Shown piece by piece: positions 5,992 to 48,644 of a stretch of DNA of 64,000 bases. The DNA is from Clytia hemisphaerica (Eukaryota > Cnidaria > Hydrozoa > Leptothecata > Clytiidae): positions 1,368,256 through 1,432,255 of the forward strand of contig CACVBU010000292.1 in NCBI GenBank assembly GCA_902728285.1, read 5' to 3'. Each line of letters opens with the position of its first letter. The first letter of the stretch is position 1. Position numbers and translations under genes: made by a program. Under the pieces are notes generated by a model. The model had not been told where the DNA came from, did not search any database, and was given only the letters and a program-made list of their open reading frames with translations.

Positions 5992-7487
5992 AATTAAAAA
6001 TACACAATTTCTCTTTTTCGCACAGAGTAGGCTTTTAAATCGAAATATGAAGAAAATCCGTAGTGGGGAACACACTCAAATGTCTGGAAAGAAGAAGACC
6101 TAGGTATGATTGATAAACTTGGTGGAGTTATCAAAACAAATTTGTTGTCAAAGAGATTTAAACAGTAAGTGAAGATGCAGGCCAGATATCAAACAATCCC
6201 ATGTTTTAGACCAATTGTTCCAAGTTGACGGTAGCGCCACCAGTAAGCATAAAAAATATAATAATACGCAGGGAACAAAGTTGTCATCTGTGATCCATCA
6301 GTTACAGTGCAAGGCTGAAAACCACATGAATATGGTTCATCCTATAAAAGGAAGTTCTTTCTATGGTGGCCCATCTTGAAGTGAAGGTGGTTGAACAGAA
6401 TATTTTTGACATATTGATGTAACTGTCCATATTTAATAATTCTTTCTAATTTTTTGCATAAAAGACAGCAAAGCTCTCCATAGCCAAGGTTCTAAGCTAA
6501 TAGTATAATTTTGGCTTTAAACTAGCCGTATTTTACAAGGGTTGCAAAGCCAGACTCCACCTCAATTCGCAAGTTGCTAGCAAAAGGCTACTTCTGTTGA
6601 AAGGTTTGCACTTTCTTACAATTCACCACATTACTGCCAAAATTAGTTTGAGAGCTTGGTTTCATTTTTGTATTTGGCGTGTTTGAACGATTTCTTGTGG
6701 TTAGCATATCACTTTTTTAAAGTTGTTTCTGCAAGACTGATGTAAATTTTACTTTTGGGTTGTAAATTCTCGTTGTCTGTTGTCAGATAGGCTTCGTAAA
6801 CAGTGTTTTTAGCTAAGCAGTTACCATTCATGGAGCATCGATTTTTGACGATGCAGAATTGCATTTTAAGATATCAATTAGTGCGACAAAGGAATTTTAT
6901 TTTGCTAAATCAACACTTTTGCGAAACATGGTCCTGAGAGGACCAAAATAGGGTGGTCTCTGTGTCAAAGTGTCCTTAAATTTTTTAGTAGATGTTTACT
7001 AAAATACCACTTGTAAACATGTAAACAATTGTCAAAAGCTCTTTGGGTCTCAATTTGTATGTTTAAAGGCTTACCTTCTGAGCTTGGTTTGAAGATATGG
7101 GCTCACCTCACAGGCTAGGCCTTGTTGTGGCAAATCTCGCAAAATTACCTTACCCACAAATGCAGCCTGGGAGTGTCTGACTGCTGCTGAGTGCAACCTG
7201 GAACAACCTCCAAACCCCTAAGGGTGCCCCTGTTCATACACGCTTATGCCTGATTCAGCCTGATTATATATAGGCAATGTACACTTATTACTAGAGCATG
7301 ATTTAGTTTCTTGGGGGTAGTGGGATCATTATAGGGGTCTAATTGATGAAACTCTAAAAACAACATCATTTTTGTTATCAACTAACATTACGCTTTGAAA
7401 TAATTTTGTCACAAAAATGTATGTCTGCAATTTACAATTCCTCTATATTTCACTCCCTGGACCAGGAGAAATTTGAATATAGTAAAG

Positions 7488-46000: not shown

Positions 46001-48644
46001 GCGGGGCGCTTATTTTTTTATTTCAGAAATTCGTATATCAACAAATTCGGAATCTGCTTAAACTTAACTGTTTCAAAGGGTTGGTTTTTCAAAAAAGGAT
46101 GAATAAAAAAAAATTGGAAAAATCCAATTGACAATGTCTATCATTTTATTCTTAAAAAATCGCTTTCTTTCTTTTTAAGACACAAGTATCTACTCAATAT
46201 CATATTAAATCAATATTTTAACTAAAAGGGGGCGCTTATTCGAGCGGGGCGCTTATTCGACGATTTACGGTAATAAACTTTCATTTAATTACTTTTAGAT
46301 AAAGAAATGATCACACCAGAGACGAAAATCCCTTGGGCTCTCTTCAATAAGGTATGTTGCTCTTGAACCTTTCTTCTTTCGTTTGATTTCGATGGTGGCA
46401 GAAAGTTATAATTCTTAACAATTTTTAGGTACTTAATGCTTCACTGAGAGAATATTTCCTTGTTTTCTTAGGAGCCGTTGAAAGGACGGAGTTTTACATT
46501 TTGGGAATGGTTCCATGGAGCCATTGAGGTTGTTCGTAAAAATCTCAAAGAACACTGGAAAGATTCGTAAGTAGATTCCATCTATCTACATAGGTTCCGT
46601 TTTCACTTTTTTTTCAAATGAACAATACAAACCCCTTGGATGTGGCAAATAAACATCATTTTTGTTTACCCCCTCCTCTCTTCATTCTTTACCTTCTTAT
46701 AACACGGAGTGAACAGACTATCCTTAGTTACTTACCATTGAATTGTCTGTAAATGGAGATACTCCAATGTATTGATCACCAAAATAATGCTCTACTTTCC
46801 CTGATAACATTGAAGAAATACCTTTCCCATTTCAGAACTCTTGAATTCATGTCACGTCAAACTGCTCATCAAAAATTATTAGAAAAAACACCTGGCACTT
46901 TCTTGATCCGATTTTCTGATGGTGAACTCGGTGCCGTAACTATCGCCTGGTGTAACGAAAGACATGGTATGGAAGGTTTTTTTTCTTCCGAGGTTATTTT
47001 TTAAGGCTCTCCTCACTTTGGTGAATGTGGAGTCACCGTGACCGTATAAGACGCCGTTGTAATCAAACACGCATCATAATCATTTTGATGAAAGCGAAAT
47101 ATTTTTATTTACACCAATCAAATGTCATTCTAATGACTCGGAATTTGATGATGATATTTTCCATCTCAGGACGAAAGGAGATTTGGTATTTGCAACCATG
47201 GAGCTCCAAAGATTTCTCTATCCGAAACTTGGCTGACAGGTGAGAGAGAATTCGTTGTATTTAATCTGAGTGAAATTCCGATAAAAGAATGATTTAAATG
47301 CTATGTCACTTTCGTGGAAATCGAGCAAGGTATCGCTTGTTCCACAATATTTATCTGATTAATGAATTTTTTTTCTTCAGGATCTTCGACATTCCAGAGC
47401 TGACGTATTTATACCCCAACATCCGAAAAGAACAAGCTTTTGGTCGTTTCAAGTCGAACGAGGGTAAATAAAGCCTTATGTTTTCATTGTAGATACATTT
47501 CATGCTTTACCTCCTGTAACCGAGAATGGCCAGTGACGTGAGATTGATGTTGGACTTGTTATAGTTATTTGTACATCATTTTGTCATCTTTTCTTCCTTC
47601 GCCCAAATTCTCCGTTCGTCAGAGTTAACTGAAATTTATGATATTCGACGGCTTAAAATGGTTTGTTCAGCTTGCTATAGTTATTCAAATTCCAATCGAA
47701 TGTCAATACACAACAAATTGGAAATTTTTTAGTTTTTATAATTCTTTTTGAGTGTATACACACTCAAGAACAATGTAAACTCAATTTTCTGGCATTAATA
47801 CATTATATCTTTCTTTAGTTGCCACTGATGTCGATCCACATGGATATGTATCTGCCGGTATCATCGCTCGAATGTATGTATCTCTTTGTTTGTATATTGT
47901 TCAATTTAAATTTCACCTTTTTGTCAACTTGAAACTTTTTCTATAAAATTTGTCTGTTGTGAATATTCGAGGAAAATATTTTGTCTTTTATAGTTTGCCA
48001 ACACAAGATCAAGCTTACATGAACCAAAATCCTTATTCACCAGGAGCTCCCCAACAACAGCAATGGCCAATGGTAAACTTTCCATCTTTCTGACTTTCTA
48101 TACTGCCAGAGTTACTACCCTTTCCTCCCCCAACCACTTGGGGAAAAGAAAATAATTTCATAGAGTCTTTTCTACCGCTAACTCGTGAACGTTTGAAATC
48201 TATCAAAGTGAGAAATCTTTTTTTGAAATGGACTTAGTTGCTTGTCTGGAAAAATATTAAATCTATATCCTGTAGGAAATCGAAAATCCTTCCCAACATA
48301 ACCATACTATCGCTATATGATCAGAATATTGTTTAGTTCAGACAAGGGCAAAATCAATCCACTCTGCAATAACTATTCAATCCTTTCTGACGGTCTTTGG
48401 TTCTTTTTTTCTTACCCAGGCTTCACCAGAATTTCCAGGTAGCAACCAACAGATCGCTTTCTCGCCACAGATGAGCGGAGGTGCTGAGATGGGCGGCCTG
48501 AATCCTAATGCGGAATTAGATTTTGCTGATTCCAGCGGAGTGGATTATAATAACATGATATCGGAAGCCAGTAATGATGCTCACATGACCAATAATATGG
48601 AATTCGCTCGCTATTTCCCTGTTGGTAACAATTATAGTCAGTAA
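37195..48644 (+). CDS. STAT: STAT transcription factor (signal transducer and activator of transcription)
   Basis: 27 exons, all junctions in frame, give 838 aa: 37195-37328, 37894-37984, 38355-38411, 38773-38862, 39946-40146, 40246-40327, 40735-40787, 41047-41127, 41510-41658, 42046-42097, 42296-42405, 42681-42812, 43017-43058, 43266-43305, 43520-43573, 43676-43717, 44124-44198, 44618-44710, 45127-45274, 46299-46351, 46472-46566, 46836-46966, 47170-47239, 47381-47463, 47819-47873, 47994-48072, 48420-48644. Domains: N-terminal protein-interaction domain (1-124; WNELRSM, FPTEVRDMFAGWFEEQDW), a Gln-rich linker (139-175), coiled coil (to about 365), DNA-binding region from SFIVDKQPP (368), linker, and SH2 with GTFLIRFSDGELG (phosphate-binding Arg about 650). 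The likely JAK-phosphorylated tyrosine is Tyr729 in HGYVSAG, in the STAT5/6-like GYV context. The tail is Gln/Asn/Met-rich. Latent cytoplasmic factor that dimerises and enters the nucleus on tyrosine phosphorylation. Confidence 0.96.
37568..37718. mobile_element. Hairpin MITE in STAT intron 1
   Basis: GGCCATGTTCGCACGTGACG and the following GTTCCGTTTCGCTCCGAAAC are mirrored almost perfectly at 37665-37717. The arms are about 52 bp, the total about 150 bp, with a short loop. GC-rich relative to the intron. Confidence 0.85.
40379..40595. mobile_element. Small inverted-repeat element in STAT intron 6
   Basis: AACTCGTTTAGACGGCCCAC and TGCCTATTCTAATTG near the left are mirrored by CCAATTAGAATCGGTCGTCT then AAACTAGAG at the right. 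GTGGGC/GCCCAC phrases recur inside. About 215 bp, diverged. Confidence 0.55.
45929..46272. mobile_element. MITE in STAT intron 19 with GCGCTTATTCGAG-type ends and TA target site
   Basis: TA then CCGTAAATCCTCGAATAAGC at the left; GCTTATTCGACGATTTACGG then TA at the right, a clear inverted repeat. The GGGGCGCTTATTCGAGCGGG block is repeated inside in direct and inverted forms. About 340 bp, no coding capacity. The target-site pattern fits Tc1/mariner or pogo-type mobilisation. Confidence 0.8.

What the first reader, a model, noticed from the sequence alone, without database searches (positions are those of the whole stretch)
6438..48644. STAT, ISG12-family and SOCS-box genes physically clustered in one invertebrate locus
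Within about 42 kb lie a full STAT gene, five ISG12 (IFI6/IFI27-like) genes plus a broken one, and two probable SOCS-box genes, interrupted by one housekeeping gene (TRMT61A) and repeats. In vertebrates these classes are transcription factor, interferon-induced effector and ubiquitin-ligase receptor/feedback component of JAK-STAT signalling. Linkage of all three in an invertebrate could be a prototype antiviral or stress-response neighbourhood. Gene identities are read from motifs; co-function is inference.
Basis: partly seen in the sequence, partly recalled or inferred. Interest (0 to 1): 0.8.

Follow-up and report, generated by a model that had tools for sequence, protein, structure and literature searches.

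The report
Jellyfish STAT beside all ISG12 genes
In the jellyfish Clytia hemisphaerica, every ISG12 gene that could be found (relatives of vertebrate interferon-induced genes) sits in a row right beside a STAT signalling gene, which makes a shared, interferon-free stress or antiviral role worth testing, though nothing yet shows that they work together.

Summary
The window is from Clytia hemisphaerica. The core observation holds: a complete STAT5/6-type gene (37195-48644, +) starts 1.1 kb after five same-strand ISG12-domain genes (24669-36088).

New: three ISG12 queries of the 417-Mb genome hit only these five genes and five counterparts on contig C701 (two further matches at E 0.13). STAT's DNA-binding domain matches only these two places. 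C701 carries a roughly 60-kb collinear copy of the block; haplotype or duplication is unsettled, since the flanks differ. So every ISG12 gene found lies beside a STAT. Treated as one locus, random placement within 25 kb has chance 1.2e-4, uncorrected.

The SOCS part is weak: no SH2, a sub-threshold tail, and an intronless family with 65 matches on 35 contigs. The 'broken ISG12' is a relic of one N-terminal exon.

Co-regulation is not shown. GAS-type motifs are at chance level; the N3 form is absent around ISG_C-F, though four N4 sites occur there. A striking motif pair is a dispersed repeat. Synteny in other cnidarians could not be tested.

The parts
37195..48644 (+). STAT gene (STAT5/6 type), complete, more than 20 matched exon segments; N-terminal domain 37195-37329, start of STAT_bind 42697-42813, SH2 core 46840-46968, C-terminal tyrosine motif GYVSAGI within 47818-47874, last open frame ends 48644
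   Evidence: tblastn with hydrozoan STAT proteins; Pfam STAT_int, STAT_bind, SH2; PDB STAT5B E 1.1e-60. Splice sites not verified by RNA; that the tyrosine is the phosphorylation site is recalled knowledge. No Clytia STAT is among the 120 of 303 proteins listed, so no database model was compared
24669..25875 (+). ISG_A: ISG12-domain gene, 252 aa with N- and C-terminal extensions (exons 24669-24879, 25123-25224, 25430-25875); an upstream first exon is possible
   Evidence: hand-spliced with GT/AG; PF06140 44.8 bits, over cut-off
26842..28896 (+). ISG_C: ISG12-domain gene, 134 aa with hydrophobic N-terminal exon (exons 26842-26899, 27822-27959, 28688-28896)
   Evidence: 114 aa of exons 2-3 identical to database protein P0006 'interferon alpha-inducible protein 27-like protein 2A', whose 20-aa start fits the exon at 26842; PF06140 24.7 bits, below the cut-off of 29.1
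30030..30959 (+). ISG_D: ISG12-domain gene (probable exon 1 from 30030, exons 30314-30472 and 30691-30959)
   Evidence: PF06140 47.3 bits on exons 2-3; first exon is an inference from a short open frame
32636..33152 (+). ISG_E: ISG12-domain gene, 112 aa (exons 32636-32771, 32950-33152); an upstream first exon is possible
   Evidence: PF06140 29.9 bits
34797..36088 (+). ISG_F: ISG12-domain gene, 315 aa with N- and C-terminal extensions (exons 34797-35124, 35265-35357, 35562-36088)
   Evidence: PF06140 34.4 bits; N-terminal extension matched only in this block and on C701 (gene and relic), apart from one match at E 2.25
31167..31749 (+). Relic of an ISG_F-type N-terminal exon (two pieces, internal stops in the second); no ISG12 core
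   Evidence: tblastn in window; counterpart on C701
13693..17814 (+). TRMT61A-type tRNA methyltransferase gene (exons at least within 13693-13929 and 17416-17814)
   Evidence: PF08704 GCD14 80.5 bits and 23.8 bits, below the cut-off of 26
7488..8819 (+). soc1: intronless 443-aa gene with SOCS-box-like tail, member of a large family
10270..11598 (+). soc2: tandem copy of soc1 (90% aa identity); only one copy on C701

Best explanation
This is the Clytia STAT locus. A STAT5/6-type gene, found only in this block and its copy on contig C701, lies immediately downstream of a locally duplicated array that holds every ISG12 gene found on this contig. Shown: gene identities, completeness of STAT, same-strand order, genome-wide confinement, a collinear second copy of the block, and coding constraint between the two copies for STAT and ISG_F. 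Inferred from the families: STAT is phosphorylated at its C-terminal tyrosine, dimerises and switches on stress or antiviral genes, and the ISG12 proteins are small hydrophobic membrane or mitochondrial proteins that tune apoptosis or antiviral state. My commitment: the adjacency arose by rearrangement, and the array then grew by tandem duplication. STAT may well regulate ISG12 genes in trans, as reported for shrimp, but the linkage itself need not be functional. The SOCS-like pair is an unrelated neighbour.
For: STAT identity and completeness. ISG12 identity. Confinement: three ISG12 queries, two from this locus and one foreign, give 10 of 10, 10 of 10 and 10 of 12 matches at the five loci here and their five counterparts on C701; the other two of the third search have E 0.13 and lie outside the ISG12 core. 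STAT_bind at 2 of 2 places, here and C701. C701 is collinear with window 6.7-54 kb, 77-100% DNA identity by block and 88-99% in blocks of 400 bases or more, and, after about 16 kb of extra sequence on C701, on to window coordinate 65.8 kb. Between the two copies the 11 STAT exons tested differ at 24 synonymous and 0 non-synonymous sites and ISG_F at 14 and 4, so both are constrained. Cores of the five ISG12 genes are 40-75% identical, as expected of an old local expansion. No promoter signature of direct co-regulation. Outside support for the pathway: shrimp IFI6-16 is reported as JAK/STAT-regulated and antiviral (PMC9144789, abstract and passages); in Nematostella the poly(I:C)-activated immune cell state upregulates a gene annotated STAT5A (PMC13319465, passages).
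Against: Random placement of the array within 25 kb of STAT has a chance of only about 1.2e-4 (treating the block as one locus), so pure coincidence is not comfortable, although many partner families would have looked as interesting. Trans regulation by STAT is itself unshown in Clytia. ISG12 relatives too divergent for these queries could exist elsewhere; a whole-genome search with the Pfam ISG12 profile at E 0.001 found nothing at all, not even the window genes, so the profile is weak exon by exon. Four N4-type GAS sites do lie in the ISG_C-STAT stretch, one of them 323 bases before the STAT start, at about the density expected by chance.
Confidence: 0.6

Rival explanations
1. A selected co-regulated neighbourhood: STAT and its ISG12 targets share a chromatin domain or enhancer, or are partly co-transcribed (spliced-leader operon), so that they switch on together under viral or stress stimulation without interferon.
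For: Confinement of all ISG12 genes found to blocks that also hold STAT; all six genes on one strand with gaps of 1.0-1.7 kb; T-rich AG acceptor-like sites 2-15 bases before the predicted start codons of ISG_A, C (core exon), E and F; hydrozoans trans-splice and Hydra has a tested operon (PMC3273482, passages).
Against: Loose GAS motifs in the window 38 (N3) against 36.3 and 30 (N4) against 35.9 expected; no N3 site from 26253 to 37360. The strict pair upstream of ISG_A is a dispersed repeat with 8 other matches and half of it is lost on C701. The gaps are long for operons (general knowledge), and a poly(A)-signal-like hexamer follows each of the eight genes checked within 800 bases, though chance gives many of these in AT-rich DNA. 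The acceptors may be ordinary cis acceptors: ISG_C has a cis-spliced first exon in the database model.
Confidence: 0.22
2. Passive junction of, or inheritance from, ancestral chromosome blocks: a TRMT61A-ISG12 block meets a STAT-TACO1 block, and adjacency is a by-product of old macrosynteny.
For: Gene order here is TRMT61A, ISG12 array, STAT, LamG/EGF exons, TACO1. Recalled, not from any call: human IFI27 cluster and TRMT61A are both on 14q32, human STAT3/5A/5B and TACO1 both on 17q.
Against: Human positions are recalled, far apart in megabases, and were not tested; no other cnidarian gene order was available.
Confidence: 0.13
3. One reading: one locus holding transcription factor, effectors and SOCS-type negative feedback of JAK-STAT signalling.
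For: A SOCS-box-like tail in soc1/soc2 (14.3 bits, E 0.048); tails of five other family members score 16.9-23.0 bits with the SOCS_box model; three C-terminal helices in a low-confidence model.
Against: No SH2 domain; family of 65 matches on 35 contigs; a better SOCS candidate elsewhere, C252:142836-143336 (SH2 43.8 bits; weak SOCS-box match 18.7 bits, E 1.35, same 265-aa ORF); a profile of the tail finds no SOCS box in the PDB; only one copy on C701.
Confidence: 0.04
4. A separate question: C701 is a true segmental duplication (or translocated copy) rather than the other haplotype, so Clytia has two STAT genes, each beside its own five ISG12 genes. The linkage would then have been copied as a unit.
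For: Collinearity is bounded: it runs from about 6.7 to 65.8 kb, and in the 50 kb fetched on each side only scattered, repeat-like matches remain, with 1 flank ORF of those tested matching C701. Synonymous divergence is high for alleles (STAT 24 of 250 sites).
Against: Other families in this assembly also come as near-identical pairs on different contigs, e.g. C197/C643 and C350/C735, as uncollapsed haplotypes would; the block ends in repeats (66-bp tandem array on the right), where assemblies and haplotypes often break.
Confidence: 0.4

Closest known systems
Vertebrate IFI6/IFI27 (ISG12, FAM14) genes
   Same: The ISG12 (Ifi-6-16) core; small hydrophobic proteins; tandem family (the human IFI27 cluster is recalled)
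   Different: Two of five here (A, F) carry N- and C-terminal extensions, one of which was found only in this block and on C701; interferons are lacking in Nematostella (PMC13319465, passage); here the genes lie beside STAT, which human IFI27 and IFI6 do not (recalled)
Shrimp LvIFI6-16 (PMC9144789, abstract and passages seen)
   Same: Invertebrate ISG12-family gene with a putative signal peptide; reported to be STAT-regulated and antiviral
   Different: No linkage to STAT is described in what I saw; Clytia regulation is untested
STAT5/STAT6 and cnidarian STAT5B-like proteins (Hydractinia, Hydra, Rhopilema)
   Same: Full STAT domain order; best hits
   Different: Linkage to ISG12 genes; gene order around those relatives could not be read here
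SOCS1-7/CIS and WSB-type SOCS-box proteins
   Same: SOCS-box-like tail; for WSB (recalled), a beta-propeller plus SOCS box, which the poor soc1 model resembles
   Different: No SH2, sub-threshold tail, intronless family; the only source-named relatives among the 5 hits are from Clytia

Membership tests
STAT | STAT_int, STAT_bind and SH2 domains in order in one gene | tested here: met
STAT | C-terminal tyrosine after SH2 | tested here: met
   TDVDPHGYVSAGI aligned to a hydrozoan STAT; phosphorylation not testable here
ISG12 / Ifi-6-16 | PF06140 over its curated cut-off | tested here: met
   4 of 5: A, D, E, F over 29.1 bits; C 24.7, below
ISG12 / Ifi-6-16 | Induction by STAT or interferon-like stimulation | not testable with these tools
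   no expression data
SOCS/CIS (JAK-STAT feedback) | SH2 domain followed by SOCS box | tested here: not met
   no SH2 in the Pfam scans of soc1 and soc2; the genome-wide SH2 search lists no match at the soc genes
SOCS-box (Elongin B/C, Cullin-5) receptors | PF07525 over cut-off | tested here: inconclusive
   14.3 bits against 23.5 for the tail alone; five family relatives 16.9-23.0 bits, all below the cut-off; PDB profile search negative
TRMT61A | GCD14 methyltransferase domain | tested here: met
   80.5 bits for the exon at 13693-13929
Co-regulated STAT target cluster | Excess of STAT-type sites at the promoters | tested here: not met
   N3 and N4 GAS totals at chance level
Co-regulated STAT target cluster | Conserved linkage in related species | not testable with these tools
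   no other cnidarian genome held; source-named ISG12 hits only in Clytia and Montipora, and no Montipora STAT among the 120 of 303 listed
Spliced-leader operon | Trans-splice acceptors, short gaps, polycistronic RNA | tested here: inconclusive
   acceptor-like sites near starts, but gaps of 1.0-1.7 kb; no RNA

The most novel reading that the evidence does not exclude
An interferon-free 'STAT-ISG12 island': in a jellyfish, the whole ISG12 effector repertoire is kept in cis beside STAT and is induced with it as a unit. That would mean the STAT-to-ISG12 link predates interferon and was held physically together in at least one early-branching lineage.
Probability: 0.2. Interest if true: 0.8.

Novelty: new variant of a known kind. 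Interest (0 to 1): 0.5.

Why it matters
ISG12 genes are textbook interferon-stimulated genes, yet interferons are not known from cnidarians (stated for Nematostella in PMC13319465, passage). If the STAT-to-ISG12 relation is older than interferon, Clytia offers a simple test bed: STAT and a compact ISG12 array in one block, in an animal that can be cultured and edited (recalled). The fact that every ISG12 gene found is in such a block makes STAT occupancy, joint induction and array removal experiments unusually clean. If the linkage proves accidental, the locus is still a useful catalogue of cnidarian STAT and ISG12 genes, including two with extra domains.

Tried and rejected
SOCS feedback role for soc1/soc2: rejected as stated (no SH2, large family, sub-threshold tail). 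Structure of soc1: AlphaFold mean pLDDT 46.8; among the 50 Foldseek rows shown of 935, many are beta-propeller proteins (folds recalled) with TM normalised by the query of 0.31 or less; a hint only. Promoter lead: a pair of strict TTCCNGGAA sites with a heat-shock-like trimer upstream of ISG_A (24472-24520) looked striking and was the only such pair within 40 bp in 163 kb of C207 and 158 kb of C701, but the segment is a dispersed short repeat (8 other matches on 7 contigs) and one site is lost on C701; rejected as evidence. ISRE-like pattern 25 against 11.2 expected: an excess, not pursued, pyrimidine tracts can give this. JAK: the FERM_F2 model found nothing over its cut-off, inconclusive because exons are searched singly. 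PF06140 genome search at E 0.001 found nothing, not usable as evidence of absence. Synonymous/non-synonymous count for ISG_C between the copies (0 synonymous, 16 non-synonymous) is not used, since its exon 2 is split on C701 and part may have been matched to a paralogue. Reading C701 as the other haplotype with about 90% confidence: lowered to about 60% after one search showed no collinear flanks; 'single-copy STAT' was reworded accordingly. Cross-species synteny: no tool held another cnidarian genome; contig lengths of the ISG12 hits and of the STAT hits listed did not coincide. Literature: searches (ISG12 + cnidarian: 0 papers) listed no title or abstract start that reports this linkage; only open-licence papers are held. 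Passages of PMC6723221, PMC11251625 (STAT, IFI6, IFI27 absent) and PMC8260672 (STAT absent) gave nothing on cnidarian STAT.
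Full report
What and where. The window is contig C207:1368256-1432255 of a 417-Mb genome in 951 contigs. The 114-aa ISG_C protein of the window is identical to part of a database protein from Clytia hemisphaerica on a contig of the same length, 3,589,940 bases, and the soc1 ORF is 96% identical to a Clytia UniRef entry. The organism is therefore the hydrozoan jellyfish Clytia hemisphaerica.

Checking the genes. STAT: segment-by-segment matches to hydrozoan STAT proteins run from 37195 to about 48632 and the last open frame ends at 48644. 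Domains are present in order. A rough string of the exons matches STAT5B, STAT5A and STAT6 structures at E 1e-60 to 7e-57 and STAT1 at about 1e-17; the named cnidarian relatives are called STAT5B, STAT5B-like or STAT5A-like (120 of 303 listed; no Clytia STAT among them). ISG12: five cores at 25.4, 28.7, 30.7, 32.9 and 35.5 kb, with an intron inside the core at the same phase in the five hand models. Spliced proteins reach the Pfam cut-off in four of five cases. A and F carry extra N- and C-terminal stretches; the N-terminal one of F was matched only in this block and on C701, as gene and as relic (a fifth match, E 2.25, is at chance level). TRMT61A is confirmed.

Genome-wide confinement. An ISG_A query, an ISG_E query at E up to 10 and a foreign ISG12 protein, P0007, give 10, 10 and 12 matches. 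All 10, all 10 and 10 of 12 lie at the five loci here and at five counterparts on C701; the remaining two (E 0.13) lie outside the ISG12 core. STAT_bind gives 2 of 2 matches, here and on C701.

What C701 is. It is collinear in reverse with window 6.7-54 kb and, after about 16 kb of extra sequence on C701, on to window coordinate 65.8 kb. In the 50 kb fetched on either side only scattered, repeat-like matches remain. Both readings stay open: an uncollapsed haplotype, as other paired contigs in this assembly suggest, or a block duplication of roughly 60 kb. I put these at about 60 and 40. In either case every ISG12 gene found lies in a block with a STAT, in the same order.

So the ISG12 family, as far as three queries can see, is an array directly upstream of STAT, with 1,107 bases from the last ISG12 stop to the STAT start. 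Treating the block as one locus, a random position within 25 kb of STAT has probability 1.2e-4.

Constraint. Between C207 and C701 the 11 STAT exons tested differ by 24 synonymous and 0 non-synonymous changes; ISG_F 14 and 4; ISG_E 4 and 2; ISG_A 1 and 2; ISG_D (exons 2-3) 1 and 4; ISG_C 0 and 16; soc1 11 and 24; soc2 20 and 39; one TRMT61A exon 2 and 5. STAT and ISG_F are clearly constrained; A and D vary too little to judge. ISG_C exon 2 on C701 is split by a 626-base insertion, so ISG_C is probably not intact on that copy and its count is not used.

The SOCS-like pair. soc1 and soc2 are intronless, 90% identical in protein, and form a 2.4-kb tandem duplication of 94.6% DNA identity that is single on C701. 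The family has 65 matches on 35 contigs (95 of 128 candidates were scored, so this is a lower bound), many of them to the last 65 or so residues only. The tail scores 14.3 bits with the SOCS_box model against a cut-off of 23.5; in the genome search, 5 of 16 SOCS_box matches fall on tails of this family, at 16.9-23.0 bits, and none on soc1 or soc2. A SOCS-box origin is likely, a SOCS-protein identity is not. One 265-aa ORF on C252 holds an SH2 match (43.8 bits) and a weak SOCS-box match (18.7 bits, E 1.35) and is the better SOCS candidate.

Regulation. The loose GAS motif TTCN3GAA occurs 38 times against 36.3 expected and TTCN4GAA 30 against 35.9. There is no N3 site between 26253 and 37360 (a gap of this size somewhere has a chance of about 3%), but four N4 sites lie in that stretch (28504, 31476, 31774, 36872), about what chance gives. 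ISRE-like sites are in excess in the window (25 against 11.2), which I did not pursue. A strict GAS pair upstream of ISG_A turned out to be a dispersed repeat. So the sequence gives no support for direct STAT control of the array. Outside work makes control plausible: silencing of shrimp IFI6-16 raised virus load and mortality and its transcription is reported to depend on JAK/STAT (PMC9144789; abstract and passages), and in Nematostella the poly(I:C)-activated immune cell state shows upregulation of a gene annotated STAT5A; that text holds none of the words IFI6, IFI27 or ISG12 (PMC13319465; passages). [quoted passage not shown] passages).

How it most likely works. STAT and ISG12 are probably parts of one old stress or antiviral response, linked in trans. 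The adjacency is probably a product of rearrangement followed by tandem duplication. A selected cis module is the boldest reading not excluded (about 20%), and a by-product of ancestral linkage is a third (about 13%), suggested by TRMT61A and TACO1 as the outer neighbours and by recalled human positions.

Verdict. Observation partly confirmed, with one strengthening (confinement of the ISG12 family to STAT blocks) and two corrections (SOCS, broken copy). Interpretation partly supported. It is worth a synteny check by anyone with cnidarian chromosome assemblies.

Noticed in passing
L028:7742-9895 (window coordinates 81642-83795, outside the window): A 718-aa intronless ORF with a Mab-21_C domain (45.3 bits) related to MB21D2 and, weakly, cGAS-like receptor 1 lies about 33 kb downstream of STAT. 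The genome has 107 Mab-21_C matches, so Clytia has a very large Mab-21-type family and one near STAT is unremarkable.
   Followed up: partly
window 6433-8845 and 9213-11624: The soc gene is tandemly duplicated on C207 and single on C701: a copy-number difference between the two copies of the block.
   Followed up: partly
window 27846-27848 (ISG_C exon 2): On C701 this exon is split by a 626-base insertion with a 3-base overlap, so ISG_C is probably interrupted on that copy.
   Followed up: partly
window 24669-24879, 34797-35124, 35562-36088: ISG_A and ISG_F have soluble-looking extensions around the ISG12 core; their N-terminal stretches are 25% identical to each other and the one of F was found only in this block and on C701. 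Fold and role unknown.
   Followed up: partly
genome-wide (e.g. C195, C338, C788, C504): A large intronless family, many members in open frames of 440-490 aa, with a SOCS-box-like tail: 65 matches on 35 contigs, a possible ubiquitin-ligase receptor expansion.
   Followed up: partly
window 24451-24560: A short dispersed repeat carrying palindromic TTCC/GGAA units (GAS- and heat-shock-element-like) upstream of ISG_A, with 8 other matches in the genome.
   Followed up: partly
window 60148-63086 (-) and 51819-54341 (-): A TACO1-type gene and a possible membrane protein gene with LamG and EGF-like exons (the EGF matches are below cut-off) are the right-hand neighbours of STAT.
   Followed up: no
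window 18445-19322 and 63358-64000: Tandem arrays of 124-bp and 66-bp units; the second continues past the window end with open frames and marks the right edge of the collinearity with C701.
   Followed up: no
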